Source: Jannaschia sp. Os4 (lineage in GTDB: Bacteria > Pseudomonadota > Alphaproteobacteria > Rhodobacterales > Rhodobacteraceae). From it: 64,000 nucleotides of DNA. Positions 44,699 to 62,022 of this stretch are shown here, one piece after another (position 1 is the stretch's first letter; each line of letters begins with the position of its first letter). The notes beneath the pieces are model-generated. The model was not told where the DNA came from, ran no database searches, and saw nothing but the letters and a program-made list of their open reading frames with translations. A program made the translations under genes and the position numbers. The stretch spans positions 62,001 to 126,000 of the forward strand of contig NZ_JAFCAR010000001.1 of NCBI RefSeq assembly GCF_016820245.1. Reading direction: 5' to 3'.

Positions 44699-46462
44699 GT
44701 GCTGCGCCGCCTCCTCCAGCGGGGCCTGACCCGGGCCATGCGCGCCCGCGCGGACGGCCCGGCCCGGGCGGGCGCGCACCTGATCCACATCGAGACCGCG
44801 CACCGGGTCGACGGACGGCTCGTCCTCGCCGGATGGTCCACCGCCGGGGAGGTCGCGCTCGCCATGCCGGACGGGACCCCGTTCGACGTGGCGCTCCGCA
44901 TGGGTCGCGAAGACGTGCGCGCCCATGCCGCCGAGCAGGGGATCGCCGTCGTCGAGCGGCCCGCGCTCGTCGCCCTCGGCCCCCGCGCGCCGATGCCGGA
45001 GCGGCTGGACGCCGTGGTCGAGGGGGTGGCGGCGACCGTGCATCCGCCGCGGACCACCGCCCTGCCGGGCGCCTTGGCCGAGCACCTCACGCGGATGGGC
45101 TTCGCGCCCAAAGCCTTGGCCGAGGCGGCCCGCGGGGCGGGCGACACCGAGTCCCTGCCCGATCGGGACCGCGCCAGCATCGACCACGTGCTGACCAGCC
45201 CCGCCGACGGCGCGACCGTGGTCGCGGGCTGGGCCTTGGCGACGCCGGGCACGCGGCTCCGGGTCGAGGCATCGGACGGCGCGACCGCCGAGGCCGAGCA
45301 GATCGTCCACCACCCCCGCGCCGACGTGCTGGAGGGGTTCGGGCTCTCGCCGGGGATCGAGCCGGGCCTCCTCGCCTACCTGCCGCCGGGACGGCGGGGC
45401 CGGACGGTGCGGATCGTCGCCGTCTCCGAGGGGCGCAGCCGCACCCTCGCCCGCTCCGGCCCGACGGACGCGCTGTCGGCCGACGCGGTGGCCGCCGCGC
45501 GCACGCTCTTCGCCCTGCCCGGACGGGAGGCGGCGTTCCGCGCGCGCGCCGAGCGGATCGACCTGCCCGTGCTCCAGCCGCTCGTCGATGCCCATGCCGC
45601 CCGCGCGCTCGCGGCGACCGTCCACCGCGAGACTGTGGGCCACCCGCCCCCCGAGCCGGAGGCGTCGCTGATCGTGCCGCTCCACGGACGGGACGACTTC
45701 GTCGAGCACCAGATGATCGAGTTCTCGCGCGACCCGTGGCTGCGCGCGCGGGCCGAGCTGGTCTACGTCGTCGACGACCCCCGCCTGATCGAGGGCGCGC
45801 GGACCCGGATGCGCCGCGCGGCGATGCTGTGGGACATGCCCGCGACGATGGTCTGGACCGGGACGAACGGGGGCTACGCCGTCGCCAACCGCATCGGCGT
45901 CGCGGCCGCGCGGGGGCCGCGCCTGCTGTTCCTCAACTCCGACGTGGTGCCGCGGGCGGCGGGATGGCTGGAGCGGATGGTCGAGACCTTGGAGGGCAGC
46001 CCGGGCGCCGGCGCGGTGGGCGCGCGGCTGCTGTTCGCGTCAGGCGGGCTGCAGCACGTCGGCATGACCTTCGCGCACGACGCGCGGCTGGGCATCTGGG
46101 TCAACCGGCATCCGATGCTGGGCGTCACCCCCGCCGACGTCCCGATGTCCGGGCCGGTGGAGGTGGTCGCGGCGACGGGGGCCTGCCTCCTGCTGCGCCG
46201 CAGCGACCACGACGCGGCCGGCGGCTGGGACACGGGCTACCTGATCGGGGACTTCGAGGACAGCGACCTGTGCCTGTCGCTCCGCGATCGCGGCCAGCGC
46301 ATCCTCGTGGAGCCGCGCGCGACCCTCGTCCACCTCGAGCGCCAGTCCGTCGGACGGGGCGAGGCGGACGGGATGCGGATGCGCACGACGATCCTCAACG
46401 CGGTGCGCCACGAGGCGCGCTGGGGCGGGACGCTCGCCCGGCTGGCGGAGGCCGGCCGGTGA
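44699..46462 (+). CDS. GT2-family glycosyltransferase with duplicated N-terminal GW module
   Basis: The 587-residue protein starts at GTG 44699, one base after idnO. Residues about 320-545 are a GT-A fold GT2 glycosyltransferase: EASLIVPLHGRDDF, TNGGYAVANRIGVAAARG, LLFLNSDVVP (the DxD-equivalent NSD) and the late acceptor region DFEDSDLCLSLRDRGQ. The N-terminal 300 residues hold two similar beta-rich modules, around residues 27-50 (IHIETAHRVDGRLVLAGWS) and 160-184 (IDHVLTSPADGATVVAGWAL). Inferred role: sugar transfer in surface polysaccharide assembly, given the capsule genes next door. Sugar unknown. Confidence 0.85.
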   Translation: MLRRLLQRGLTRAMRARADGPARAGAHLIHIETAHRVDGRLVLAGWSTAGEVALAMPDGTPFDVALRMGREDVRAHAAEQGIAVVERPALVALGPRAPMPERLDAVVEGVAATVHPPRTTALPGALAEHLTRMGFAPKALAEAARGAGDTESLPDRDRASIDHVLTSPADGATVVAGWALATPGTRLRVEASDGATAEAEQIVHHPRADVLEGFGLSPGIEPGLLAYLPPGRRGRTVRIVAVSEGRSRTLARSGPTDALSADAVAAARTLFALPGREAAFRARAERIDLPVLQPLVDAHAARALAATVHRETVGHPPPEPEASLIVPLHGRDDFVEHQMIEFSRDPWLRARAELVYVVDDPRLIEGARTRMRRAAMLWDMPATMVWTGTNGGYAVANRIGVAAARGPRLLFLNSDVVPRAAGWLERMVETLEGSPGAGAVGARLLFASGGLQHVGMTFAHDARLGIWVNRHPMLGVTPADVPMSGPVEVVAATGACLLLRRSDHDAAGGWDTGYLIGDFEDSDLCLSLRDRGQRILVEPRATLVHLERQSVGRGEADGMRMRTTILNAVRHEARWGGTLARLAEAGR

Positions 46463-47703
46463 GCCACCGCGTCCTGACCTTCGCCCACGGCTCCCCTGAG
46501 TTCAGCCGCGGCGGCGCCGAGACGGCCGCCCATGCGCTGGCCGGAGCCTACCGCGCCCATCCGGAGGTGGAGCGCTCGGTCTTCGTCGGGCGCCACGACA
46601 ACGGGCGCGGCGCGACCGGCAGGCTGATCCCGCTGCGCCCCGACGAGTACCTCTACGAGCAGGCGATCGACGACTGGTTCCGGCTGCAGTCCGCGAACCC
46701 GGAGGCGATGCTGGACGGTCTCGCCGACCTCGCGCGCGCGCTGCGGCCCACGATCATCCACCTGCACCACTACATCCACGTCGGGCTGGAGATGATCCGC
46801 GTCCTGCGCCGGGCCGCGCCGGGCGCCCGCATCCTCCTGACGCTGCACGAGTACATCGCGATCTGCGAGAACCAAGGCCAGATGATCAAGACGGGGTCCA
46901 TGGACCTGTGCCGCCGCTCGGGGCTGGAGGCGTGCCACCGCTGCTTCCCCGCGCGCAGCCCCGAGGACTTCTGGCTCCGCCGCCACCGCATCCTGCGCTA
47001 CTTCGACGACGTCGACCTGTTCGTCGCGCCCTCGGAGTTCCTGCGCGGGCGCTACGTCGACTGGGGCCTCGCGCCGGACCGGATCGTCACGCTGGAGAAC
47101 GGCCAGCCGCCGATGGCTCCCCTGCCCCCGCGCCCGCTCGGCCCCGGCGAGGGGCGCGGGCGGTTTGGCTATTTCGGGCAGATCACGCCCTACAAGGGGA
47201 TCGAGACGGTGCTGCGCGCGCTGGCCGCCGTCCCGCCCGAGGCGCGGGGCGGGATCACCTTGGAGGTCAACGCCGCCGAGATGCGCCATCAGCCGGACGG
47301 GCTGCGGGAGCGGATCGACGACCTGCTCCGCCCCTTGGAGGCGCAGGGAAGCGTCCAGTGGCGCGGGGCCTACGAGCCCGACCAGATGGCCGAGCGGCTG
47401 GCGACGGTGGACTGGGTCGTGGTGCCCTCGGTCTGGTGGGAGAACTCGCCGATGGTGATCCAGGAGGCGTTCGGCCACGGGCGGCCCGTGGTCTGCTCGG
47501 ACATCGGGGGCATGGCCGAGAAGGTCGCGGACGAGGTCGACGGGGTCCACGTGCCGATGGGCAGCCGGTCCGCGTGGTCCGCCGCGCTGCGCCGCCTCGC
47601 CGCGCCCGACGCCGCTGCGGGGTGGGACCGGCTGCGCGCGGGCATCACCCCTCCGCCGACGGCGGCCCAGCAGGTGGAGCGGCTCCTGGAGCTGGCGGGC
47701 TGA
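46459..47703 (+). CDS. GT4-type glycosyltransferase
   Basis: The 414-residue GT-B protein begins at a GTG overlapping the previous stop by four bases. N-terminal domain: TFAHGSPEFSRGGAETAAHA (sugar-acceptor Gly-rich loop). Between them is a Cys-containing insert after LTLHEYIAICENQGQ with LCRRSGLEACHRCF. C-terminal domain: RFGYFGQITPYKGIETVL, VVPSVWWENSPMVIQEAFG (the EX7E region) and GHGRPVVCSDIGGMAEKV. It retains a nucleotide-sugar. Its last 59 bases overlap, antisense, the end of the KpsS-like gene. Confidence 0.88.
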   Translation: MSHRVLTFAHGSPEFSRGGAETAAHALAGAYRAHPEVERSVFVGRHDNGRGATGRLIPLRPDEYLYEQAIDDWFRLQSANPEAMLDGLADLARALRPTIIHLHHYIHVGLEMIRVLRRAAPGARILLTLHEYIAICENQGQMIKTGSMDLCRRSGLEACHRCFPARSPEDFWLRRHRILRYFDDVDLFVAPSEFLRGRYVDWGLAPDRIVTLENGQPPMAPLPPRPLGPGEGRGRFGYFGQITPYKGIETVLRALAAVPPEARGGITLEVNAAEMRHQPDGLRERIDDLLRPLEAQGSVQWRGAYEPDQMAERLATVDWVVVPSVWWENSPMVIQEAFGHGRPVVCSDIGGMAEKVADEVDGVHVPMGSRSAWSAALRRLAAPDAAAGWDRLRAGITPPPTAAQQVERLLELAG

Positions 47704-48964
47704 CGCCCTCGTTCCCCGCCCCCTTCACCCCCGCGCGGGGGCGATCACTCAGCAGGTCGTGGATCGTCCCGTCCTCCACCCGGCGGACGATCTCCGCCGC
47801 CGCGAGGCGGCGTCCGTTCGGCTCGTAGAACGATCCCTTCACCTGGATCCGGGCCAGCGCCCGCAGGAGGCGGTCCGTCGCATCGGGATCGGGCGGCCCG
47901 GCCTCGGTCCAGAAGCGGTCCAGCCCACCCTGCCACGTCACGCCCGGCGCGTCGTAGACGGCCGTTCCCATCGCCACCGTCGGGCACCCCGCCCGCAGCG
48001 CCGTCAGCCCCACGGTCGAGTTCACGGTGACCACGCCGCGCGCGGCCCGCAGCAGGTCGCCGAGGTCGCCGCCCCGCACCGCGTGGACCCGGTCCGCGAT
48101 CCCGTGGCGCGCGGCCATGCGCGGCACCACCGCGCTCCAGCGGCGCAGGCCCACGTCCAGCGGATGCGTCTTGAAGAGCAGCCGCCGCCCCGCCGGGGCA
48201 TGCGCGGCGAAGGAGGCGAGCACCTCGTCGACGAAGTCCGCGAGGTCGTCGTAGCGCGAGGACTCGCGGATCTGGTAGTCCTCGGCGATCTGCAGCGGGA
48301 CGAGGTCGAACGGCGCGCCGGAGCGGTGCAGCGCCGCGATCTCGCGCTCCGCCGCCCGCGCCTGGACCGGCATCCGCAGCAACTGCGCCACCCATGCGAG
48401 ATAGAAGAACGGGGGCCAGAGCGGCCAGTCGTGCCGCCAGTGCGGCCACCACGGCCACGACGCGGACTGAGCGAGGTGGAAGCCCACGTCGGCCATCGCC
48501 TCGTCGCGGAACCAGCGATGGCCGTGGCGCACCTCCATGTCAGGCAGGGGCCGGTCTTCGGCGAGGGCCGCCAGCGCCGCCGGATCCGAGGGGAAGCGCG
48601 ACACCGCGCCCATTCCCTCGGGCTCCAAGGTGATCCAGTCCGGGCGCAGGTAGCCGAACTCGACCGCCCACGCGCGCGCGCGCGCCTTGCGCGCGACGTC
48701 CAGGGCGCGAGCATGCTGCGGAACCCGGTCGGCGTAGTAGATCACGTCCGTGACCCCCTCGCGCGCGATCAGGTCGGCCAGCCATGCGGGCCAGTCCTCC
48801 AGCCTGCCCCGGTAGGAGATCGCCGCCCGCGCGCCCCAGAAGAGGCGGTCGCCCAAGCCGAAGTTCACCTTGACCACCCGGTGCCCAGCCGTCTCGAAGG
48901 CGCGGCCGAGGTCGCGCCAGAACGGGCCGGGCGGGCCTTGCAGCAGGAGCACCGTGCGGGGCAT
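47645..48964 (-). CDS. KpsS/RkpJ-like capsule polysaccharide export protein
   Basis: The 439-residue protein belongs to the capsule polysaccharide export (KpsS/LipB) group: RTVLLLQGPPGPFWRDLGRA at the start, VKVNFGLGDRLFWG, ITLEPEGMGAVSRFP, FKTHPLDVGLRRW and NSTVGLTALRAGCPTVAMG. KpsS-type enzymes are Kdo transferases building the poly-Kdo linker on the lipid anchor of group 2 capsules. ATG at 48964 starts directly at the conserved strand; an in-frame ATG at 48991 would add 9 residues and overlap the divergent SDR start. The C-terminal 30 residues are Pro/Ala-rich and read antisense to the GT4 gene. Confidence 0.85.
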   Translation of the reverse strand: MPRTVLLLQGPPGPFWRDLGRAFETAGHRVVKVNFGLGDRLFWGARAAISYRGRLEDWPAWLADLIAREGVTDVIYYADRVPQHARALDVARKARARAWAVEFGYLRPDWITLEPEGMGAVSRFPSDPAALAALAEDRPLPDMEVRHGHRWFRDEAMADVGFHLAQSASWPWWPHWRHDWPLWPPFFYLAWVAQLLRMPVQARAAEREIAALHRSGAPFDLVPLQIAEDYQIRESSRYDDLADFVDEVLASFAAHAPAGRRLLFKTHPLDVGLRRWSAVVPRMAARHGIADRVHAVRGGDLGDLLRAARGVVTVNSTVGLTALRAGCPTVAMGTAVYDAPGVTWQGGLDRFWTEAGPPDPDATDRLLRALARIQVKGSFYEPNGRRLAAAEIVRRVEDGTIHDLLSDRPRAGVKGAGNEGVSPPAPGAAPPAGPPSAEG

Positions 48965-48984
48965 CCCCGCGGAGGGAGGACGCG

Positions 48985-49803
48985 ATGTCATCGAAGGGAC
49001 CGGACTGGCGCGGGATCGCGATCACGGGCGCGTCCGGCGGGATCGGCGCGGCGCTGGCCGAGGCGGTGGCGGCGCCGGGTCGGACGCTGCTGCTGATGGG
49101 GCGCGACGCGGACCGGCTCGCGGCGGCGGCCGCGCGAGTCCGGGCACGGGGCGGCGCGGTCGAGACCGCGGCCCTGCCCCTCTCGGACCGGGCGGCGCTG
49201 GCCGAGACGCTGCAGGAGTTCGATCGCCGCCATCCGGTCGACCTGCTGGTGGCGAACGCGGGCGTCAAGACGGGCAACGCGCGCGGCGTTGAGCCGGCGG
49301 CGCAGACGGCGCGGGTGCTCGACGTCAACCTCGGCGCCGCCTTCGCCACCGTCGGCGCCGTGCTGCCCGCGATGCAGGCGCGCGGGCGGGGCCGGATCGC
49401 GCTGACCGGCTCGATGGCGGCGGTCGCGCCCGTGGGGGACCTGCTCTCCTACGCGGCGAGCAAGGCGGGCCTCCATGCCTACGCGAAGGGGCTCCGGCGC
49501 GCGGTGGCCGGGACGGGCGTGGGGGTCACGCTGCTGGTGCCGGGCTTCGTGGACACGCCGATGACCGATCGCCACGCGGGGCCGACGCCCCTCCTGCTCG
49601 CGCCCGAGGCGGCGGCGCGGCGCTTCGCGGACGGCCTCGCGCGGGGGGCGCGGGTCGTCGCCGCGCCGCGGCGCCTGTGGTGGCTCGCACGGCTGGGCGA
49701 GGCGCTGCCGGGGCCTTGGGCGGATCGCGCGGTGGCGGGTCATGCCGCCCGCATCGCGCCGGACGCGGACGAGGTCAGAGACGAACCTCCCGCGAGGCCC
49801 TGA
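48985..49803 (+). CDS. Short-chain dehydrogenase (RkpH-like) of the capsule-lipid cluster
   Basis: The 272-residue SDR has the cofactor site AITGASGGIGAALAEAV, LLVANAGVKTGNARG, the catalytic Ser in ALTGSMAAVAPVGD, YAASKAGLHAYAKGL (YxxxK) and a C-terminal extension of about 60 residues (ARVVAAPRRLWWLARLGEALP) that resembles the membrane-facing tail of 3-ketosphinganine reductase-like and DltE-like SDRs. Good AGGGAGGA ribosome-binding site. Next to an oxoamine synthase and a PKS, it could reduce the 3-oxo group of their product. Its 3' end overlaps the oxoamine synthase end by 29 bases. Confidence 0.85.
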   Translation: MSSKGPDWRGIAITGASGGIGAALAEAVAAPGRTLLLMGRDADRLAAAAARVRARGGAVETAALPLSDRAALAETLQEFDRRHPVDLLVANAGVKTGNARGVEPAAQTARVLDVNLGAAFATVGAVLPAMQARGRGRIALTGSMAAVAPVGDLLSYAASKAGLHAYAKGLRRAVAGTGVGVTLLVPGFVDTPMTDRHAGPTPLLLAPEAAARRFADGLARGARVVAAPRRLWWLARLGEALPGPWADRAVAGHAARIAPDADEVRDEPPARP

Positions 49804-54100: not shown

Positions 54101-57100
54101 CGGGCGCTGGCGTCGTCGTCCTCGGCCAGCACGGTGACGTGGTCGGCCACCCCGCGCAGCGCGGCGATCACGGCGTCGCCCGCGTCGCCCGCCACGGCGG
54201 CGCGCCCCACGCGGCCCGGCCACGCCCGCAGGACCGCCACGGCGGTCGTCGCGAGATCGGGAAGCGGCGCGGATCCGTCCCCCTCGCCCGCCTCCAGCGC
54301 GGCGCGCAGCTCGGTCGCCGCCTCCGGCGCCTCGACCGGCACCATCGCGGCGAGCTCGTCCAAGGACGGGAACGGCTCGGCCTCGTCCGCGAGGCCCGCC
54401 TCCGCGAGCCACGCGGCGGCGGCGGGGTCGGCGTCCCGCCGCTCCCACGCGAGGCGCCCGCCGAGCGCCGCGCGCAGCACGTCCGCGTCCGACGGCTCGA
54501 CCCCCTCGGAACGCGCGACGGCCGCGACCGCGTCCGCCAGCCCCGAGGCGCCCGTCCCTGCCAGCGGGACCAGGACCTCGTCCCAGTAGGGGTTCACCGC
54601 CGCGCCTCGCGCCATGTCCGGCAGCATGCGCAGGCGCAGCCCCTCCATCTCCAGCACGGCACGCCCCTCCGCGTCATGGGCGACGACGTCGACGGCCACG
54701 CTCTCGGCCCAGCCGCCCGCGCGCCGCACCCGCGAGCCGGCGATGGCCCCGCCCGGTCCGAGCCGGACCCGGTCGATCCGCGCGGGGACGCGCAGCACCT
54801 CCGCGTCGAACCCCTCGTCGCGCACCAGCGCCCCGGCCGGATGCAGCGCCGCGTCCGCGGCGGCCGGGTCGAACAGGAGCGCCGGGTCGACCGCGTCGCG
54901 GGGGAGGATCCGGGCGTGGACCTCCCCCGGTCCGCGCCGGAGATCCGCGACCCGCGCGAAGGCGGGGCCATAGCGCAGCCCGCTCCGCCCGAGCGCGTCG
55001 TAGAGCGTCGCGCCCGCCTCGTCGGACGCGGGGGGCGACACCGTCTCCGCCACCGCCTCGCCCGCGAAGGCGCGCGCGACCGCGGCCACGGACCACGGCC
55101 CGCCGCCGACCGGGCCCGTCTCCAGCCGCAGCGCCCGCGCGGCGCGGTCCAGCACGACGCGCAGCGGAAGGGGCGCGTCCTCGGGCAGCTCGACCGGGCG
55201 CAGGAACTCGACGTCGCGCAGCTCGACGGCGTCGAGGCCGAGCCCCTCGCGCGCGGCGGCGGCGAACATCTCGACCATCGCGGCCCCGGGCAGCAGGACG
55301 CGCCCGCCGACCACGTGGTCCCCGAGCCAAGGGTCGCGCGCGAGCGTGATCGCGCCGCGCCACTCGTCCCCGTCGGGACGCGGCCGTCCGCCCATCAGCG
55401 GGTGCTGCGGGCGGCGGGCGAACAGGTCCAGCGCGTCCGCGCGGGCCAGCCGGTGACGCGTCCTCTCGAACGGATAGGCGGGGAGCCCGTCGATGGCCCG
55501 CCGCTCCGGCCCGAGGACGGCCGCGCGGTCCACCCGCCCGCCGGCGGCGGTCACCGCGCGGGCGATGGCGGGGGCGTCGCGGCGCTCGGCCCGGGTCGCG
55601 TCCAGCGTCTCCAGCACGACGGTCTCGGCCTCGTGCCCCGCGAGGCTGTCGCGGAGGTAGGCGCGCAGGACGGTCTTGGGCGAGATCTCGAGGATCACCC
55701 CCATGCCCGCGTCGGCCAAGGCCCGCGCCCCGTCGCGGAAGGCCACGGCGCGGCGGGCGTTGCGCCACCAGTAGCTCGCGTCGAGCGGGCCGTCGTGGAC
55801 CGCGCCGGACCAGCCCGAGACGAAGGCCACGTCCGAGACGCCGTCCCCGGCGATGCCGTCCACGGCGGCGCGCAGGTCGGCCTCCAACGGGTCGAGCGCG
55901 GAGGAATGGTAGGGGAAGGCGATCTTCAGGACGCGCCCGGCCACGCGCGCCTTGCGCGCGGCCTTGGCGAGCGCGGCGACGTCGTCGGCGGATCCCGAGA
56001 CGGTCACGCTCTCGGGCGCGTTGACCGCCGAGATCTCGCAGGCGAGGCCCGCCTCCGCGATCAGCGCCTCGATCCGCGCGGGCGCGGCGGCGAAGGCGGC
56101 CATCCCGCCGGTCCCCTCCAAGGGCGCGAACGCCCGGACCCGGCCCGCGACGATGCGCGCGCCCTCGGCGCGCGAGATGCGGCCCGCGACGACGGCCGCC
56201 GCGACCTCGCCCAGCGAATGGCCCAGGACCGCATGGGGCGTCACGCCCGCGGCGGCCAGCGCGTCCACGATCGCGAGATGGAGCGCGAAGGTCAGCGGCT
56301 GCGCCACCGCCCCCTCGCCCAGGCGGGCGTCCAGCCCCGGATCTGCGAGCGTCTCCTCGAGCCCGTCGATCCCCTCGGCGGCGAACAGGGCGGCGGTCTC
56401 GCGCAGGGAGGCGGCGAAGACCGGGTCGGTCGCCATCATGTGCCGCCCCGCCCCGGCCCAGAGCGCGCCGTTGCCCGAGAAGGCGAAGGCCACCGGCGCA
56501 TCGCGCAGCCCGCCCTCGCGGGCGGCGTCCGGCCCGCTGCCGGGGGCGTCGGCGAGCCAGGCGTCCAAGGCGTCGTGCAGCGTCGCGGCATCCCCGGCGG
56601 GCAGAACCAGCGCGTGCCGGAGCCGCGCGCGGCGATGGTTGGCCGTGGCGATCCGGTCCCCCAAGGCCGGGCCGTCCTGCGTCCGCCACCCGCGGGCGAG
56701 CGCCTTCAGGGAATCCGCCGTCGCCGCCGTGAGCATCAAGGCGGTCGGCAGGGCCTGCGACGTCGGCTCGGGGTGCCACCGCGCGGCCCGGATCACCGCA
56801 TGGGCGTTCGCGCCGCCGAACCCGAAGGAGTTCACGGCGGCCAGCGCGGGCCGCTCCGCGTTGTCCAAGGGGACCGCCTCGCGCGCGACGCGGAGGCCGA
56901 GGGAGTCGAAGTCGATCTCGGGGTTCAGGACGTCGGCGTGGAGGGACGGCGGCAGGAGGCCGTGCTCCAGCGCCATCTGCGCCTTCAGGAGCCCCACCAA
57001 CCCCGCCGCGGGCTCCAGGTGCCCGAAGTTCGTCTTGGCCGAGCCGATGGGCAGCGGCGCGTCCCGCCGCACGCCGTAGGCCCCGCCGATGGCCGCCGCC

Positions 57101-58080
57101 TCGCGCGGGTCGCCCACGGCGGTGCCGGTGCCGTGGGCCTCCACGAAGGCGAGGTCGCCGGGGTCGAAGCCCGCCCCCTCCATCGCGCGCTCCATCAGCG
57201 CCTGCTGCCGCGCGCCCGAGGGCAGCGCGATCCCCGCCGTCCGCCCGGCCGAGCCGACCGCCGTCGTCACCAGCTCCGACCGCGCCCGCCGCCCGGCCGC
57301 GCGGGCCGCCTCGGCCCGCTCCAGCACGAAGACGACCACGCCCTCCGCGCGGACGTAGCCGTCCGCGCCCGCCGCGAAGGCGCGGCACAGGCCGTCGGGC
57401 GACAGCATCCCGGCCTGCGAGAAGCCGACGAACGGCAGCGGCGACAGCAGGAGGTTCGACGCGCCCACCACCGCGAGGTCGATCTCCCCGGAGGCGAGCG
57501 CGCGCCGCGCCTGGTCCAGCGCGAACAGCCCGGAGGAGCAGGCCGTGTCCACCGTGTGCGACGGCCCGTGGAGGTCGTAGAGATGCGCGATCCGGTTTGA
57601 CAGGATCGAGAGCGTGTTGCCCAGCATGTATTGCGGGCCGGCCATCGTCATGTCGCCCAGCGCCGTCAGCGCGTAGTCCGCCGAGGAGCCCCCGACGAAC
57701 ACCCCCGCCCGCTCGCCGTCGAGCCGGCCCGGCTCGATGCCCGCGTGGTCGAAGGCCCGCGCCACGTTCTGCAGCAGGAGCCGCTGCTGCGGGTCCATCT
57801 GCTCGGCCTCGGCGGGGGAGATGCCGAAATAGGACGTGTCGAAGGCGAAGGGGTCGTCCAGGACGCCGGCCGCCGTCACGTAGGAGAGGCCGCGCGCGCG
57901 AAGGCCCGGCGCCGCGAACCGGGCGGCGCTCCACCGCTCGGGCCCGATCTCGCCCACGGTGCAGCGCCCGCCGGCGAGGACGTCCCACGCCGCGTCCGCG
58001 CCGTCCGCGCCCGGCAGGGTCGCGGCGTAGCCGGTGATCGCGATGCGGGACCCGGTCGTGTCGGGACGCGTTTCGTCCAT
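51109..58080 (-). CDS. Fully reducing type I PKS/FAS (KS-AT-DH-ER-KR-ACP), RkpA/WcbR-like
   Basis: The 2323-residue megasynthase has one complete module. KS (about 10-430): VDTACSSG with Cys181, His316 (EAHGTGT) and His354 (NFGHLEP). AT (about 528-830): GHSLGE with Ser622 and FPYHSSALDP with His725. DH (about 893-1160): HVVGGRVLLP with His922 and Asp1076. A spacer of about 420 residues has no intact methyltransferase motif. ER (about 1590-1905): HGAAGGVG. KR (about 1918-2140): GGPGGFG, Ser2051, Tyr2064, Asn2068. ACP (about 2192-2262): GFDSLLAM with Ser2225. There is no thioesterase; the next gene is the oxoamine synthase. All catalytic residues look intact, so an iterative, fatty-acid-like saturated product is expected. 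ATG 58080 starts MDETRPDTTGSRIAITG. Confidence 0.93.
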   Translation of the reverse strand: MDETRPDTTGSRIAITGYAATLPGADGADAAWDVLAGGRCTVGEIGPERWSAARFAAPGLRARGLSYVTAAGVLDDPFAFDTSYFGISPAEAEQMDPQQRLLLQNVARAFDHAGIEPGRLDGERAGVFVGGSSADYALTALGDMTMAGPQYMLGNTLSILSNRIAHLYDLHGPSHTVDTACSSGLFALDQARRALASGEIDLAVVGASNLLLSPLPFVGFSQAGMLSPDGLCRAFAAGADGYVRAEGVVVFVLERAEAARAAGRRARSELVTTAVGSAGRTAGIALPSGARQQALMERAMEGAGFDPGDLAFVEAHGTGTAVGDPREAAAIGGAYGVRRDAPLPIGSAKTNFGHLEPAAGLVGLLKAQMALEHGLLPPSLHADVLNPEIDFDSLGLRVAREAVPLDNAERPALAAVNSFGFGGANAHAVIRAARWHPEPTSQALPTALMLTAATADSLKALARGWRTQDGPALGDRIATANHRRARLRHALVLPAGDAATLHDALDAWLADAPGSGPDAAREGGLRDAPVAFAFSGNGALWAGAGRHMMATDPVFAASLRETAALFAAEGIDGLEETLADPGLDARLGEGAVAQPLTFALHLAIVDALAAAGVTPHAVLGHSLGEVAAAVVAGRISRAEGARIVAGRVRAFAPLEGTGGMAAFAAAPARIEALIAEAGLACEISAVNAPESVTVSGSADDVAALAKAARKARVAGRVLKIAFPYHSSALDPLEADLRAAVDGIAGDGVSDVAFVSGWSGAVHDGPLDASYWWRNARRAVAFRDGARALADAGMGVILEISPKTVLRAYLRDSLAGHEAETVVLETLDATRAERRDAPAIARAVTAAGGRVDRAAVLGPERRAIDGLPAYPFERTRHRLARADALDLFARRPQHPLMGGRPRPDGDEWRGAITLARDPWLGDHVVGGRVLLPGAAMVEMFAAAAREGLGLDAVELRDVEFLRPVELPEDAPLPLRVVLDRAARALRLETGPVGGGPWSVAAVARAFAGEAVAETVSPPASDEAGATLYDALGRSGLRYGPAFARVADLRRGPGEVHARILPRDAVDPALLFDPAAADAALHPAGALVRDEGFDAEVLRVPARIDRVRLGPGGAIAGSRVRRAGGWAESVAVDVVAHDAEGRAVLEMEGLRLRMLPDMARGAAVNPYWDEVLVPLAGTGASGLADAVAAVARSEGVEPSDADVLRAALGGRLAWERRDADPAAAAWLAEAGLADEAEPFPSLDELAAMVPVEAPEAATELRAALEAGEGDGSAPLPDLATTAVAVLRAWPGRVGRAAVAGDAGDAVIAALRGVADHVTVLAEDDDASARRRAALDPSVPTAFATTSEAEDAEAGFDLIVGLSLSTAAGGAAAQAALARLLVPGGGIVAFEEAADLFARMTGRHRRADALAALRHAWAGEGLDPSETPSAGREAVRIVHARRTGGAVDLPVPRLTVTGAGPLADALAEMSGRGAPVAAHVVDPQDDAAWFAILRDLPPSRGPLWLVAPVADRWEVGAAWRRVAANEMERDIRLLAHGPEADAAEVATLLASAEQEVVCGADGSAAPRLVPLPDPATVARGPRRLEAARRTMALDGLRWRAVTEAAPGPGEVEVAVEAAGVNFRDTMWAQGLLPPEALERGFAGACLGMEMAGTVTRAGDGAAFAPGDRVMGFASHAFATHATVDARALLPLPEGMSFEAGAALPVALLTARYALEEAGRLRPGETVLIHGAAGGVGLAAVQVAKAMGARVLATAGSPARRRLARAMGADLAFDSRSPGFEREVRAATDGRGADVVVNSLAGEALERGLGCTAPFGRFVELGKRDLYENGAITLRALRENVSLHVVDVDQLLSHRADSLRPMMEALRTDLAAEDRPGLPVTVLEAGDAAEALRRMSRASHMGKLVLRAPVAGAAATREAAPIRGGWVVVGGPGGFGLETALWLHAQGAERLWLVSRSGRMGAADRARAEAAGLPFEVLRADVTDAAALAAALDAARAAGPIRGVVHAATVYDNADLDEMTEARVAAALAPKTLGAANLDRLTADDPLDHFWMYASVASRFGSTAQGPYCAANMALEALARRRHAAGRPALAVAWGPIEDAGILDRSEALRTALARRMHPMPAATALRRLREWLDGGDPRPTVTLAPVEWSRVAVQAVVMSGPLFDLVDARRPKSEGGRLHLPTLLAEKGAEGARAALLEAVVEEAARVLRLAPADVDPRQPLMQMGFDSLLAMNLRLGVEERIGQAMQTMAVDEALTLAKMAASLLDGAAEAPDGDDALAEMERRHLADEDALGAESRARLRRIAAPDAPGERAEVERHPPQAPAAS

Positions 58081-58280
58081 TGCTCCCACCTCGCTCGGCC
58101 GGTCCGGGGCCGTTCGGATCGACTGCATCGTGGTTATCCACCGCCTGCACCGGCGACAACCCGAGGGCACGGGTCCGCCGATGGAACGCGGGCCATTGGA
58201 CGCCCCCGCCGCCGAGGTATAGGCCCCGTCGGGGGATCGGGGCGGGACCGGCGGGAACGTGCCGCCGCGCGGGAGGGTCG
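58081..58280. promoter_or_regulatory. Divergent spacer between the PKS and the glycosyltransferase pair
   Basis: These 200 bases separate two divergent operons of the capsule locus and should hold both promoters. The centre (58125-58165) is relatively AT-rich. I see no clear -35/-10 pair or operator. A GGGAGGG ribosome-binding site precedes the ATG at 58281. Confidence 0.4.
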
Positions 58281-59348
58281 ATGGAAGGCGAGACGGCCGT
58301 CGCGGACCGGAGCGGATCGGCGGGCGCGCGAGTCGCGCCCCGGCCGCCCATGCCGTCCGCCCCGCGCGGCCCGCGCGCCGGGGCCAGCCCGACGGCGGAC
58401 CTCTACCTCGGGTTCTCGGCCGAGCCTCTGAGGGCGGACGGCGTGCTGCGCATGGTCGCGCCGACGGTCGCCCTCGCCGGGGACACCTTGGTCATCCTGC
58501 GCCACGCGCGGGGCCTGCGCCGCCCACCCCCGCACCGCCGGGTGGCTTGGCTGATCGACGACGACGTCGCGGCAGGGTTGGGCGATCGCGCGCTGCCATG
58601 GGCCTACCGGGCGCATCTCGCGCGGACGGCATGGCCCGCATGGCGGCGGTGGTCGCGGCGCGCGGACCTCATCCTCGCGGCCTCGCCCGCCCTCGCCGAC
58701 CGGCTGCGCGCGGTCGGCGCGACGGCGCCGATCACCGTCCTCCCGCCCGCGTGGCCCGCGGACGCGATGGCCCGGCCCGGCACCGGCCCGATCCGGCGGG
58801 TGGCCCTCTCGATGGGTCTCTCGCACGCCCGCGACGCGGCCCCCTTGGGGGCGGCGCTGGCGGACCTGCTGTCGCGCTGGCCGGACCTCCGGGTCGAGGT
58901 GACCGGCGCCGGATCGGGCATGGCGCCCCTGCGCGGCCACGCCCGGGCCGATCTGCGCCCCGAGGCCCCGTGGCCCGCCTACTGGGACCGGCTGCGCGGG
59001 CGCAGCTACGACCTCGGTCTGGTCCCCCACCTCGCGGGCGGCCCGTTCAACGCGTCCCGGTCCGGCGCGAAGCTCGGCGAGCACGCGGTCGCCGGGGCGG
59101 CGGTCCTCGGCCAGGCCGGGTGGGCACCCGGGGACGCGGCCCGGCGCGCGGGGCGCGCCCTGTCTGTCGAGGGCGGCGCGGAAGCCTGGACCGCCGCCAT
59201 CGAGGCGGCCCTGCAGGATCCGGCCCCCGCCCGCGCGGCCGCCGAGGCGGCGTGGACCCACCTGCGCGCCGACGCGGCGGGGGAGCGGCAGCGCGCGGTG
59301 TGGCGCGCCATCGCCGAAGGAACGCCGCCGCCGGAGGCCGCGCCGTGA
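58281..59348 (+). CDS. GT-B-type glycosyltransferase-like protein
   Basis: The 355-residue protein has a polar N-terminal 40 residues, then RVAWLIDDDVAAGLGD, RADLILAASPALADRLRAVG, ITVLPPAWPADAM (inter-domain region), RRVALSMGLSHARDAAPL, LRVEVTGAGSGM and a C-terminal KLGEHAVAGAAVLGQAGWAPG. This is the order of a GT4-like GT-B enzyme, though key motifs are divergent, so the subgroup is uncertain. The ATG at 58281 follows GGGAGGG; longer readings run back into the PKS promoter. The stop overlaps the next GTG by four bases. Confidence 0.75.
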   Translation: MEGETAVADRSGSAGARVAPRPPMPSAPRGPRAGASPTADLYLGFSAEPLRADGVLRMVAPTVALAGDTLVILRHARGLRRPPPHRRVAWLIDDDVAAGLGDRALPWAYRAHLARTAWPAWRRWSRRADLILAASPALADRLRAVGATAPITVLPPAWPADAMARPGTGPIRRVALSMGLSHARDAAPLGAALADLLSRWPDLRVEVTGAGSGMAPLRGHARADLRPEAPWPAYWDRLRGRSYDLGLVPHLAGGPFNASRSGAKLGEHAVAGAAVLGQAGWAPGDAARRAGRALSVEGGAEAWTAAIEAALQDPAPARAAAEAAWTHLRADAAGERQRAVWRAIAEGTPPPEAAP

Positions 59349-61933
59349 CCGACCGCCCCGACACGGTCGCCCCGCCCGGCCCGGTCCGGGTCGGCGGAGG
59401 CGTGGCGCAGGGCCGCGTCGCCGAGGCGTGGCGCGTCGTCCTCGAGGCGGTGCGCCGCAGGATCGCCCGCCGCGTGCGCGGCCCGCGGCTGTCCCTCGCG
59501 CGGTCGGGCAACCCTGGCCATCTCGACGCCGTGCGGGTCGAGCGCGGCGAGACCTTCGTGAAGGGCTGGACCGGCGGGCGGCGCGTGACGCTGCGGACCG
59601 AGCAGCAGACCCTCACCCTCGCCCCCCGCGACGCGCGCGAGGACGTGGTCGGCATCCCCGGCGGCGCGCGCGGGTTCGAGGCGCGCCTGCGCGGCGTGAC
59701 CTTCCTCGACGTCGCCGTCGACAGCCGCGCGGCCCTGCGGGTCCGGCTCGACACCCCGTGGCAATGGACGAAGGCGTGGGCGCGGCTCTACCCGACGGTC
59801 GCGCTCGCGATCCCGTTCCGGCACGGGCGCGACCTGTGGCGCTACCTCGTCCGCGGCGACGCCGTCGCGGCGGCGCGGCTGGAGGCGCTGCTCGTCCCCG
59901 CGCCGCCCGCGCCGAGCGTGCCGCGCGCGGCGGCCCGCCTGTTCGCGGACCGGGACGCGCCGCCCGTGCCCGCCCCCGTCGAGCCGGTCGACATCGTCGT
60001 GCCGGTCCACGACGCCCATGACGACCTCGTGGCCTGCCTCGAGCGGCTGGAGCGGCACACGGAGCCGCGGCACCGGGTGATCCTCGTGGACGACGCCTCG
60101 CCCGATCCGCGCATCGCGCCGCTCCTCGCCGCGTTCGCGGCCCGCCGTCCCGGGACCTTCGTCCTGCGCCTCGACGAGAACGGGGGCTTCGTCGCCGCCG
60201 CCAACGCGGGCCTCGCCGCCGCCCGGGGCGACGTGGTCCTGCTGAACACGGACGCCTTCGTCTCGCCCGGCTGGCTGGACCGGCTGATGCGGCCGATGCG
60301 CGACGACCCGACGGTCGCCACCGTCACCCCGCTGACCACCGACGGCGAGATCGCGTCCGCCCCGCGCATCTGCCGCCGCAGCGAGCCCGACGACGCGGCC
60401 CTCGCGGCGATGGAGGCGGCGGCGCTGCGGCTCGACCCGCTCCGCGCGACGGTCGAGGCGCCCACCGGCGTGGGCTTCTGCATGGCGATGGCCGCGCGCT
60501 GGCTGGACCGCGTCCCCGCCTTCGACCCCGCGTTCGGGCGCGGCTACGGCGAGGAGGTCGACTGGTGCCGCAAGGTCGAGGCTCTCGGCGGGCGCCACCT
60601 CCTGACGGGCGCGGTCTTCGTCCGGCACCGGGGCGGCGGATCCTTCGGGGCGGAGAAGGCCGAGCGCGTCGCGCGCAACAACCGGATCGTCTCCAAGCGC
60701 CACCGGGGCTACGACGCCGAGGTCGCGGCCTTCGTCGCCCGCGACCCGCTGATCGGCCCGCGCTTCGCCCTCGACCTCGCCGCCGCGGCGGCGGAGACCG
60801 GAGCGGACGGGACCGGCCCGCTGCCGATCTACCTCGGCCACCATCTCAAGGGCGGGGCCGAGCAGTGGCTGCGCGAGACGCTCGGCCGCGACAGGGACGC
60901 GGGGCGCCACGCCATCGTCGTCCGCGACGGAATCGGCAGCGACCACGCCCTGATCGAGCTGCACCGCGCCCGGCGCGGCGACGTGCCGCCCCGGGTGACG
61001 CGGGTGGACGTCCCGCTCGACGACCTGAAGGCGTTCCTCGCCCTGCCCGTCCGGCGGGAGCTGACCTATTCCTGCCTCGTGGGCGCGCGCGCGCCGCTCG
61101 CGCTGCTGCGGCGGGCCGTCGCGTCCCTCGCGCCGGAGGACGGGCTGCGCGTCCTCTTCCACGACTTCTACCCGCTCTGCCCCTCCTACAACCTCCTGAC
61201 CGCGCAGGGGGCGTTCTGCGGCCTGCCCGCGCGGGCGGCCTGCGACGCCTGCCACGCAACGCTCGTCGACAGCGGCGCGGGCGAGGGCGCGCGCCCGGTC
61301 GACGTGCCCGCGTGGCGGGCGCAATGGCGCGGGGTGCTCGGACGGGCGGACGAGATCGTGACCTTCGCACCCTCCTCCCGCGACCTCGTCGCGCGGGTCT
61401 GGCCGCACCTCGCCGACCGCATCCTCGTGCGCCCCCACGACCCGTCGGTCGTGCCCGCGACCGTCGCGCCCCCGGCACGGGCCGACGGGCTACCGGTGGT
61501 GGGCGTGCTCGGCGCGATCGGACAGGCCAAGGGCGCCGCGGTCCTGCACCGCTTGGCCGAGACGGCGGGGGACCGGCTGCGCCTCGTGGTGATCGGGCGG
61601 ATCAGTTCGGGATGGAGCCATCCGCACCTGCATGTCCACGGGGACTACGACCGCGACCACATCGCCGACCTCGCCGCGGATGCGGGGATCGAGCGGTGGC
61701 TGATCCCCTCGATCTGGCCGGAGACGTTCTCCTACACGACGCACGAGGCGCTCGCGACGGGCCTGCCGGTCCACGCCTTCGACCTCGGGGCGCAGGCGGA
61801 CGCGCTGCGGGACCATCCGAACGGCCACCTCCTGCCGCTCGACGCGACGCCGGAGGCCTTGGCCGAGGCGCTCGGCGCGGCGCCGCGGCGGAAGGGCCGG
61901 CGGGGCGGACGACTCCGGCGGCGCCGGGCCTGA
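59345..61933 (+). CDS. Bifunctional glycosyltransferase (GT2 plus GT4-like domains)
   Basis: The 862-residue protein starts at a GTG overlapping the previous stop. A GW module at 59-77 (LDAVRVERGETFVKGWTGG) matches those in the protein at 44699. GT2 domain, about 214-460: PVDIVVPVHDAHDDL, RVILVDDASPDP, ENGGFVAAANAGLAAARG, VLLNTDAFVSPGW, GYGEEVDWCRKVEALGG. GT-B domain, about 490-850: IYLGHHLKGGAEQWL, FHDFYPLCPSYNLL with a Cys knuckle (CGLPARAACDACH), VVGVLGAIGQAKGAAVLHRL and LIPSIWPETFSYTTHEALAT. It probably adds two sugars in one surface polysaccharide repeat. It ends in a basic tail. Confidence 0.87.
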   Translation: MTDRPDTVAPPGPVRVGGGVAQGRVAEAWRVVLEAVRRRIARRVRGPRLSLARSGNPGHLDAVRVERGETFVKGWTGGRRVTLRTEQQTLTLAPRDAREDVVGIPGGARGFEARLRGVTFLDVAVDSRAALRVRLDTPWQWTKAWARLYPTVALAIPFRHGRDLWRYLVRGDAVAAARLEALLVPAPPAPSVPRAAARLFADRDAPPVPAPVEPVDIVVPVHDAHDDLVACLERLERHTEPRHRVILVDDASPDPRIAPLLAAFAARRPGTFVLRLDENGGFVAAANAGLAAARGDVVLLNTDAFVSPGWLDRLMRPMRDDPTVATVTPLTTDGEIASAPRICRRSEPDDAALAAMEAAALRLDPLRATVEAPTGVGFCMAMAARWLDRVPAFDPAFGRGYGEEVDWCRKVEALGGRHLLTGAVFVRHRGGGSFGAEKAERVARNNRIVSKRHRGYDAEVAAFVARDPLIGPRFALDLAAAAAETGADGTGPLPIYLGHHLKGGAEQWLRETLGRDRDAGRHAIVVRDGIGSDHALIELHRARRGDVPPRVTRVDVPLDDLKAFLALPVRRELTYSCLVGARAPLALLRRAVASLAPEDGLRVLFHDFYPLCPSYNLLTAQGAFCGLPARAACDACHATLVDSGAGEGARPVDVPAWRAQWRGVLGRADEIVTFAPSSRDLVARVWPHLADRILVRPHDPSVVPATVAPPARADGLPVVGVLGAIGQAKGAAVLHRLAETAGDRLRLVVIGRISSGWSHPHLHVHGDYDRDHIADLAADAGIERWLIPSIWPETFSYTTHEALATGLPVHAFDLGAQADALRDHPNGHLLPLDATPEALAEALGAAPRRKGRRGGRLRRRRA

Positions 61934-61945
61934 GGAAGGGGGGGA

Positions 61946-62022
61946 TGGTACCACCTCCCCGGCTCGAACGGGGGACCTCCTGATCCACAATCAGGCGCTC
62001 TAACCAACTGAGCTAAGGCGGC
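61946..62022 (-). tRNA. tRNA-His (anticodon GTG)
   Basis: On the minus strand the sequence folds as a full cloverleaf, 77 nt with encoded CCA (61946-61948). The acceptor arm is GCCGCCT with AGGTGGT, the D arm contains AGCTCAGTTGGTTAGAGC, the anticodon stem CCTGA/TCAGG frames loop TTGTGGA with anticodon GTG, and the T arm is CCCCG/CGGGG around TTCGAGC. The base before G1 is T, not G, and the discriminator is A73, the alphaproteobacterial exception to the G-1/C73 rule. Confidence 0.96.

What the first reader, a model, noticed from the sequence alone, without database searches (positions are those of the whole stretch)
44699..61933. Capsule-lipid type locus: PKS/FAS, alpha-oxoamine synthase, SDR and KpsS-like gene framed by glycosyltransferases
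Seen: a complete KS-AT-DH-ER-KR-ACP protein, an AONS-family PLP enzyme coupled to it by TGATG, an SDR, a KpsS-like protein, and four glycosyltransferase genes in 17 kb. Known: rkpA/rkpG/rkpH/rkpJ of Sinorhizobium K-antigen and wcb genes of Burkholderia capsule combine the same enzyme classes. Inferred: the set makes a dedicated lipid or amino-lipid anchor/carrier for a surface polysaccharide. I do not know of such a locus being characterised in this group, and transporter genes (kpsMT, kpsC, kpsF) are absent from the window.
Basis: partly seen in the sequence, partly recalled or inferred. Interest (0 to 1): 0.8.

Follow-up and report, generated by a model that had tools for sequence, protein, structure and literature searches.

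The report
Polyketide-built lipid anchor for capsule
A 17 kb bacterial gene cluster looks like a factory for an unusual, probably sphingosine-like lipid on which a second sugar capsule is built, a variant of the long unsolved Sinorhizobium "rkp" capsule lipid that can now be tested directly.

Summary
In detail: window 44699-61933 carries a KS-AT-DH-ER-KR-ACP PKS, an alpha-oxoamine synthase (AONS) coupled by TGATG, an SDR, a KpsS-like beta-Kdo transferase and four glycosyltransferase genes, one of them weak. PKS and AONS fall in the RkpA and RkpG clades. Capsule export genes lie elsewhere in the genome. In 5 of 7 PKS relatives with flanks of about 14-20 kb, KpsM/T/E lie near the locus and are closer to this genome's C2 set than to its C4 set. 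An extra KpsS occurs in 9 of 10 PKS-AONS genomes and 0 of 18 others.

I go further: a Pseudomonas PKS-AONS-SDR cluster makes sphinganines (PMC12134224). I propose that this locus makes a sphinganine-like base as acceptor for its own KpsS, a capsule anchor beside the ordinary one. It is a variant: the RkpI phosphoglycerol transferase was found in 0 of 28 family genomes, and its KpsS is not of the RkpJ clade (74). The chemistry is inferred. A sphingolipid anchor has been suggested before, for Porphyromonas gingivalis (PMC5126122, 123).

The parts
51109..58170 (-). Iterative type I PKS/FAS, KS-AT-DH-ER-KR-ACP, no thioesterase match; RkpA/WcbR-like (longest frame; the true start may be an ATG 14 or 30 codons in)
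   Evidence: Pfam; RkpA 39-41%; KS tree; motifs
49775..51109 (-). Alpha-oxoamine synthase, RkpG/WcbT-like, coupled to the PKS by TGATG
   Evidence: RkpG 45%; tree; coupling; clade-specific Tyr95
48985..49803 (+). Short-chain dehydrogenase/reductase, proposed 3-ketosphinganine reductase; tail-to-tail overlap with the AONS
   Evidence: Pfam; S-Y-K residues; beside KpsS in several relatives
47645..48991 (-). KpsS-like beta-Kdo transferase (PF05159), accessory 'a' clade
   Evidence: Q and D of QxxxD and the H-P of KxHP the same in 26 of 26 aligned rows; tree
44699..46462 (+). Glycosyltransferase family 2
   Evidence: Pfam
46459..47703 (+). Glycosyltransferase family 4
   Evidence: Pfam
58281..59348 (+). 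Probable glycosyltransferase (GT4-like, weak profile match); homologs near the G168 and G101 loci
59345..61933 (+). Two-domain glycosyltransferase GT2+GT4; homologs near the PKS loci of G061, G168, G036
   Evidence: Pfam
61946..62022 (-). tRNA-His, right border of the cluster (no attachment-site repeat found in the window)

Best explanation
The locus is an accessory capsule-lipid module of the rkp-1/wcb kind. The PKS iteratively builds a long saturated acyl chain on its ACP (inferred from domains). The AONS off-loads it by decarboxylative condensation with an amino acid, most likely L-serine, giving a 3-keto-sphinganine (inferred from the SgaB precedent). The SDR reduces it to a sphinganine-like base (inferred). 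The dedicated KpsS-like enzyme puts the first beta-Kdo on this base, directly or through an unknown head group (inferred); further Kdo or glycosyltransferases (in this genome possibly the C5 KpsC) build the polysaccharide, and the C2 KpsM/T/E with a KpsD/Wza protein export it. This cell would thus run two anchor systems: the ordinary KpsS on contig C5 and this one.
For: Homology and gene set match S. meliloti rkp-1. AONS tree: 24-row clade with RkpG, SH-aLRT 100. KS tree: 15-row clade with RkpA 99/98, the two modular rows outside. KpsS keeps Q and D of QxxxD and the H-P of KxHP in 26 of 26 rows; in KpsC the QxxxD aspartate is the proven nucleophile (PMC10148158 passages). Extra PF05159 match above 195 bits in 9 of 10 PKS-AONS genomes, 0 of 18 others (93; 1.4e-6, 94; line drawn after seeing the scores). 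KpsM/T/E within the fetched flanks in 5 of 7 relatives, all five KpsE nearer to the own C2 than C4 copy. In G083 the KpsS pair and an SDR stay together on a contig other than that of PKS+AONS. P. fluorescens SgaB is a serine-specific SPT and the cells make C24-C28 sphinganines (PMC12134224, 41, 42). Two Novosphingobium plasmids pair KpsS with SDR, LTA synthase and a sterol-desaturase-family gene without PKS or AONS in the stretch. A P. gingivalis SPT mutant shows less K-antigen capsule (PMC5126122 passages).
Against: No lipid or mutant data for this organism or locus. PfSgaB's sequence was not held; kinship to SgaB rests on architecture and a plasmid Pseudomonas homolog. The SDR profile did not single out 3-ketosphinganine reductases among the best 60 of 488. 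RkpI, found in 7 of 7 unfused plasmid relatives opened, is absent here, so a lyso-PG-like head group has no candidate enzyme. Exporters are not linked to the locus in this genome. G095 has no extra KpsS; G168 has no KpsMTE and no SDR in its flanks; G101 and G083 have the PKS-type KpsS pair but no KpsC/KpsS pair of the ordinary kind by score and length, so the KpsC step cannot be general. The P. gingivalis effect on capsule is partial and may be indirect.
Confidence: 0.55

Rival explanations
1. The cluster makes a free glycosphingoid or amino-glycolipid for the outer membrane (or a secreted one), not a capsule anchor; KpsS and the glycosyltransferases decorate the lipid with a short glycan.
For: Four glycosyltransferase genes in the cluster; no match to the three exporter families in the 64 kb window; Thioclava and Paracoccus plasmids carry a PKS of the same KS clade with a glycosyltransferase and no annotated AONS or kps gene in the 25 kb shown; Planktothrix and Streptomyces relatives fuse AONS to the PKS without annotated kps genes nearby.
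Against: KpsMTE near the locus in 5 of 7 relatives; rkp-1 is tied to K-antigen and poly-Kdo secretion (PMC4881576 passages).
Confidence: 0.23
2. A transient lipid carrier or export signal, as the rkp literature words it, rather than the lasting anchor.
For: A review of S. fredii describes rkp-1 products as making a specific lipid carrier for secretion (passages).
Against: The ABC-dependent pathway assembles on a lipid that forms the glycolipid terminus (PMC10148158 passages, 73; PMC12220298 passages); the dedicated KpsS suggests the same here.
Confidence: 0.12
3. The AONS uses glycine or alanine, or the product is not a sphingoid but another amino-ketone lipid.
For: The clade has its own signature (Tyr in 24 of 24 rows where Asn stands in 81 of 81 others), so specificity cannot be read off known SPTs.
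Against: SgaB showed virtually exclusive preference for serine over alanine and glycine (PMC12134224, 41); the best-scoring solved structures are serine palmitoyltransferases.
Confidence: 0.2
4. A silent relic of a laterally acquired cluster without present function.
For: 0 of 19 other species of the genus have the AONS at E <= 1e-55 (103); exporters are unlinked.
Against: Frames are intact and most catalytic motifs kept; base composition and codon use are not foreign.
Confidence: 0.08

Closest known systems
rkp-1 region (rkpA-G-H-I-J) of Sinorhizobium meliloti (L121; the rkp names are recalled, the record gives products only)
   Same: PKS, coupled AONS, SDR, KpsS-like protein, homologous gene by gene; capsule polysaccharide role in print
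   Different: No RkpI (LtaS/GacH-like phosphoglycerol transferase) found in the whole genome here; the KpsS is outside the RkpJ clade (74); gene orientations differ; glycosyltransferases flank it
wcb-type loci of Burkholderiales (Caballeronia L122, Paraburkholderia L145; the name wcb is recalled)
   Same: PKS, AONS, SDR near capsule export genes
   Different: Those add an LTA synthase and an LpxC-like deacetylase (between PKS and AONS); neither is among the window cluster genes
SgaA/SgaB/SgaC sphingolipid cluster of Pseudomonas fluorescens MYb115 (PMC12134224)
   Same: Iterative PKS + AONS + SDR; shown there: C24-C28 sphinganines and SPT activity of SgaB
   Different: Described as secondary metabolism acting on a worm host; the main text has no hit for capsul, rkp, polysaccharide or export. 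PfSgaB sequence not compared; supplements not seen
Group 2 ABC-dependent capsule with KpsS/KpsC and (lyso)phosphatidylglycerol anchor
   Same: PF05159 beta-Kdo transferases and KpsMTE/KpsD-type export genes in the genome
   Different: Proposed acceptor is a PKS-made sphingoid lipid with its own KpsS; the ordinary KpsC/KpsS pair sits separately on contig C5
Sphingolipid-dependent capsule presentation in Porphyromonas gingivalis (PMC5126122, passages)
   Same: The authors speculate that sphingolipids may anchor surface polysaccharides; SPT mutant has less K-antigen capsule
   Different: Classical SPT, no PKS; effect partial; no link drawn to rkp/wcb/PKS loci in the passages seen
Vi capsule of Salmonella Typhi
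   Same: Precedent for a capsule lipid anchor other than lyso-PG (PMC12220298 passage)
   Different: Its anchor is an acylated N-acetylhexosamine resembling lipid A

Membership tests
rkp-1/wcb capsule-lipid locus | One-module KS-AT-DH-ER-KR-ACP PKS of the RkpA clade | tested here: met
   (15-row clade with RkpA, 99/98; the clade also holds two PKSs without AONS)
rkp-1/wcb capsule-lipid locus | AONS of the RkpG clade next to the PKS | tested here: met
   (SH-aLRT 100; quick tree with long-branch warnings)
rkp-1/wcb capsule-lipid locus | RkpH-like SDR in the cluster | tested here: met
   31% to RkpH, 40% to the Caballeronia SDR; SDRs are a broad family, so weak alone
rkp-1/wcb capsule-lipid locus | RkpI, LtaS/GacH-like phosphoglycerol transferase | tested here: not met
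   0 of 28 family genomes incl. own; the same profile finds it in Methylobacterium and Sneathiella, which were not in the profile
rkp-1/wcb capsule-lipid locus | KpsS-like protein of the RkpJ clade | tested here: not met
   window KpsS is in a separate clade of accessory KpsS; it is a KpsS-like enzyme with catalytic motifs
rkp-1/wcb capsule-lipid locus | Needed for capsule production | not testable with these tools
   needs a mutant
PKS-type sphinganine (Sga) cluster | Adjacent iterative PKS and AONS plus SDR | tested here: met
PKS-type sphinganine (Sga) cluster | AONS has serine palmitoyltransferase activity; product sphinganine | not testable with these tools
   enzyme assay and lipidomics needed
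PKS-type sphinganine (Sga) cluster | Sequence kinship with PfSgaB itself | not tested
   sequence not held; a Pseudomonas plasmid AONS (L144) lies in the same clade (75)
ABC-dependent (group 2) capsule system | KpsS/KpsC and KpsMTE plus KpsD/Wza in the genome | tested here: met
   PF05159, PF02563, PF01061 over cut-off; KpsE by TIGR01010 under its cut-off; KpsT by similarity to relatives
ABC-dependent (group 2) capsule system | (Lyso)phosphatidylglycerol anchor | not testable with these tools
   chemistry needed
Modular secondary-metabolite PKS | KS groups with modular PKSs | tested here: not met
   the two modular rows fall outside the 19-row clade, 100/100 (89); one unannotated Streptomyces KS is inside it

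The most novel reading that the evidence does not exclude
There is a second, widespread class of capsule anchor: PKS-made sphingoid bases. The rkp-1, wcb and Sga clusters are one pathway; in this family it runs without the phosphoglycerol transferase, so a dedicated KpsS glycosylates the sphingoid base itself in the cytoplasm, in this genome beside an ordinary capsule pathway. The 'secondary-metabolite' sphingolipids of Pseudomonas would then be anchor precursors.
Probability: 0.4. Interest if true: 0.78.

Novelty: new variant of a known kind. Interest (0 to 1): 0.5.

Why it matters
In the passages seen, the lipid made by the rkp-1 genes is described only as a specific lipid carrier. Joining these genes to a proven PKS/AONS sphinganine pathway gives a definite chemical prediction for the end of capsules in rhizobia, Burkholderiales and this family. 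It would widen the list of capsule anchors, give the PKS sphingolipids a cell-envelope role, and turn a speculation made for P. gingivalis (PMC5126122, 123) into a testable pathway. Library searches listed no paper that, by title and start of abstract, joins rkp, wcb or PKS-AONS loci to sphingoid capsule anchors; these lists were partly capped (15 of 23, 15 of 76, 15 of 28), listed papers were mostly not opened, and most subscription papers are not held.

Tried and rejected
Secondary-metabolite PKS: rejected by the KS tree and AONS tree. Ordinary KpsS of a group 2 locus: rejected, since the ordinary pair is on C5 and the window KpsS is in another clade. Recent foreign island at tRNA-His: longest exact repeat of the tRNA region elsewhere in the window is 14 bases, no composition shift; lateral gain is still possible because 0 of 19 congeners have the AONS. 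Phosphoglycerol-sphinganine as acceptor in this family: lowered, no RkpI. In other groups the LtaS-type reaction is, from general knowledge, periplasmic, which sits badly with a cytoplasmic KpsS; left open. SDR as 3-ketosphinganine reductase by profile against solved structures: inconclusive (96, best 60 of 488 seen). KpsS alone finds no solved structure; its profile finds only four KpsC entries, weakly (E 0.0015 to 0.0044, 95). KpsS structure prediction without an alignment: mean pLDDT 50.3, too poor, not used. The one genome-contig scan used narrow peptides and gave mostly other AONS enzymes.

Rows dropped and limits: G064 fell out of the AONS tree (reading under 250 aa); Acidisoma_2 was left out of the motif count in 76 but stands in tree 74 as a long branch. 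The 195-bit line was chosen after seeing the scores (best of the 18 others: 181.6). The 14 genomes without AONS were taken from the head of the list (G001-G018 without G004, G008, G014 and the AONS-bearing G012), not at random. G126, G152, G064 and G133 show no PKS in the fetched flanks. G095's PKS is a fragment at a contig end. Functions of the 81 other AONS rows were not assigned here. KS rows outside the rkp-type group were chosen by me from the best hits. Start sites are my choice.

Full report
WHAT IS THERE. The window (C1:62001-126000 of a 3.54 Mb genome in 10 contigs) holds, from left to right: GT2 44699-46462(+), GT4 46459-47703(+), KpsS-like 47645-48991(-), SDR 48985-49803(+), AONS 49775-51109(-), PKS 51109-58170(-), a GT4-like gene 58281-59348(+) and a GT2+GT4 gene 59345-61933(+), then tRNA-His. 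PKS and AONS overlap by TGATG (102). The genes just to the left match a pseudouridine synthase and dehydrogenases.

KINSHIP. The plasmid collection holds an S. meliloti record with the rkp-1 order: export protein, PKS, AONS, SDR, (unannotated RkpI frame), KpsS-like, KpsF (the Rkp names are recalled, the record gives only products). Window versus S. meliloti: PKS 39.4% over 1171 aa and 40.7% over 717, AONS 44.7%, SDR 31.2%, KpsS 39.0% (33). The AONS tree of 105 rows puts the window with RkpG, Burkholderiales, Pseudomonas, Shinella, Methylobacterium and family members in a 24-row clade (SH-aLRT 100, quick method, long-branch warnings); the own genome's three paralogs lie elsewhere. At one column all 24 rows have Tyr where all 81 others have Asn (110). 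The KS tree of 26 rows has a 15-row alphaproteobacterial clade with RkpA (99/98) inside a 19-row clade (100/100); the two modular rows and five others are outside, while the Thioclava and Paracoccus PKSs without AONS and one Streptomyces KS are inside.

CAPSULE LINK. The genome has an ordinary KpsC / KpsD-like / KpsS set on C5, KpsT/E/M on C2, a second KpsT/E on C4 (the TIGR01010 matches to KpsE are below that model's cut-off) and a further Poly_export protein on C1 (15). In the family, 14 of 198 genomes, own included, have an AONS at E <= 1e-55 (25). Flanks were opened for the other 13, some cut by contig ends, most of all G162 and G095. Nine of the 13 have the PKS (G061, G168, G162, G036, G101, G083, G104, G095 as a fragment, G012); four show none (G126, G152: 34; G064, G133: 121). 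Of the seven PKS relatives with flanks of about 14-20 kb, six have a KpsS-like gene in them (not G083) and five have KpsM, KpsT and KpsE (G061, G036, G101, G104, G012). All five KpsE are nearer to the own C2 KpsE (35-44%) than to C4 (23-30%), so the C2 exporter is the likely partner. PF05159 over 28 genomes: a match above 195 bits in 9 of the 10 PKS-AONS genomes (not G095) and 0 of 18 others, whose best is 181.6 (93); exact probability 1.4e-6 (94), with the line drawn after the fact. An ordinary full-length KpsS match (152-187 bits, outside the PKS locus) is in 24 of 28, a cut one in G162, none in G101, G083 and G017 (93). So the two-pathway picture holds for this genome and most, not all, relatives. 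G162 shows PKS, SDR and both KpsS types on a second contig, and G083 keeps both KpsS and an SDR together on another contig than PKS and AONS: there SDR and KpsS go together without the PKS.

KPSS. A 27-row tree separates an accessory clade 'a' (window, G101a, G168a, G061a, G036a, 98/97, with G104 and G012 next, 94/100), a clade 'b' of the same four relatives (94/99), the rhizobial RkpJ clade (98/99), and a group with E. coli group 3, Polaromonas, Paracoccus, Pseudorhodobacter and the own C5 KpsS (94/91); the order among these clades is not resolved. Gln and Asp of QxxxD, the His-Pro of KxHP and an N-S-T are the same in 26 of 26 rows; the QxxxD aspartate is the nucleophile in KpsC (PMC10148158, passages). 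So the window enzyme has the make-up of an active beta-Kdo transferase.

WHAT LIPID. PMC12134224 (abstract, sections 7, 8 and 15 and passages seen: 38, 39, 41, 42, 106, 107) shows that P. fluorescens PKS SgaA and AONS SgaB make C24, C26 and C28 sphinganines and most likely phosphoglycerol sphingolipids; purified SgaB is a serine-specific SPT; an SDR, SgaC, is proposed as the ketone reductase. The main text has no hit for rkp, capsul, polysaccharide, export or glycosyltransferase. A plasmid Pseudomonas relative (L144) has PKS, AONS, then PhyH, a PF05159 protein, GNAT, LTA synthase, then SDR, KpsS, a second such protein, KpsF, kdsB, kdsA. The SDR is five locus-tag steps after the AONS there (RS26440 to RS26415) and also in MYb115 (RS19800 to RS19775): a hint, not a test, that the Sga cluster is such a capsule locus. 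Of nine plasmid loci of the AONS clade opened (28-30, 45-50; nine of the 15 best hits), seven have capsule export or PF05159 genes in the stretch; the two without (Planktothrix, Streptomyces) fuse AONS and PKS. One of the seven, Acidisoma, has AONS and SDR but no annotated PKS there. All seven also have an LTA-synthase-type gene (28-30 and 45-50, with 34, 53, 54 for those unannotated). Its profile matches the phosphoglycerol transferase GacH (9.3e-28) and LtaS in solved structures. Two Novosphingobium plasmids have KpsS, LTA synthase, SDR and a sterol-desaturase-family gene without annotated PKS or AONS in 29 kb; four other annotated KpsS loci (Cupriavidus, Paracoccus, E. coli, Polaromonas) have neither SDR nor LTA synthase annotated; two more opened had no annotation. 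That sphingomonads use their classical SPT for the base is my inference.

EARLIER SUGGESTION. PMC5126122 (passages) reports less K-antigen capsule in a P. [quoted passage not shown] So the general idea is in print as a speculation, for a classical SPT and another phylum.

THE VARIANT. The RkpI/LTA-synthase profile finds nothing in 28 of 28 family genomes, own included, while it finds Methylobacterium and Sneathiella, not used in the profile, and S. meliloti; it also misses Beijerinckia, which has PKS and AONS, and two further genomes. Hence the core PKS-AONS-KpsS set exists without it in some lineages. Since RkpI and the RkpJ-clade KpsS were tested and not met, I do not file the window as an rkp-1 locus in the strict sense, but as a variant of that kind.

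HOW IT LIKELY WORKS. Shown: the genes, their kinship, motifs, co-occurrence. Inferred: acyl chain by PKS, release by AONS with serine, reduction by SDR, Kdo transfer by KpsS, chain building by glycosyltransferases (and perhaps KpsC), export by C2 KpsMTE. Confidence: capsule-lipid locus of rkp/wcb type about 0.85, amino-lipid of sphingoid type about 0.65, sphingoid as acceptor of the local KpsS about 0.5.

DISTRIBUTION. 0 of 19 other species of the genus have the AONS, and 14 of 198 family genomes do: accessory and patchy. Base composition and codon use are not foreign.

AGAINST. No chemistry, no mutant; SgaB itself not compared; SDR assignment open; G095 and G168 lack parts of the pattern; G101 and G083 lack an ordinary KpsC/KpsS pair (93); the related PKS with a glycosyltransferase but no annotated AONS in Thioclava and Paracoccus shows that kin of this PKS can sit in other settings.

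NOVELTY. New here, as far as the listings show, are the link of these loci to PKS sphinganines, the version without RkpI, the accessory KpsS clade and the evidence for two parallel anchor pathways in one genome (searches; lists partly capped).

Noticed in passing
L144 (NZ_CP016850.1), 8329-31083: Plasmid typed as mobilizable in Pseudomonas carrying PKS, AONS, LTA synthase, SDR, KpsS, two further capsular biosynthesis proteins, KpsF, kdsB and kdsA: a nearly complete transferable capsule-anchor set.
   Followed up: partly
L155 10615-15209; L159 10641-15233: Two Novosphingobium plasmids pair KpsS with LTA synthase, SDR and a sterol-desaturase-family protein, without annotated PKS or AONS; a possible capsule anchor on classical sphingoid bases.
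   Followed up: partly
L163 11971-20074; L164 11950-21438: Rhodobacterales plasmids (Thioclava, Paracoccus) with a PKS of the RkpA-like KS clade next to a glycosyltransferase, without annotated AONS or kps genes nearby: an uncharacterised glycolipid-like cluster.
   Followed up: no
window 49775-51109 (AONS residue 95): Column where all 24 rows of the RkpG-type AONS clade have Tyr and all 81 other rows have Asn: a diagnostic residue.
   Followed up: partly
own genome C2:140222-143077, beside KpsMTE: 951-aa protein with many glycine/aspartate-rich repeats, by eye like hemolysin-type calcium-binding repeats, next to the C2 capsule exporter (translation).
   Followed up: no
G126, G152, G133, G064 loci (L140, L142, L177, L175): A second AONS type without PKS in the flanks; G126, G152 and G133 group with Acidisoma's AONS (G064 not placed), and in G126, G133 and G064 an RkpH-like SDR lies within 3 kb.
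   Followed up: partly
G101 and G083: Two family members with the PKS-type KpsS pair but without a KpsC/KpsS pair of the ordinary kind by score and length: possible organisms with the PKS-type anchor only.
   Followed up: no
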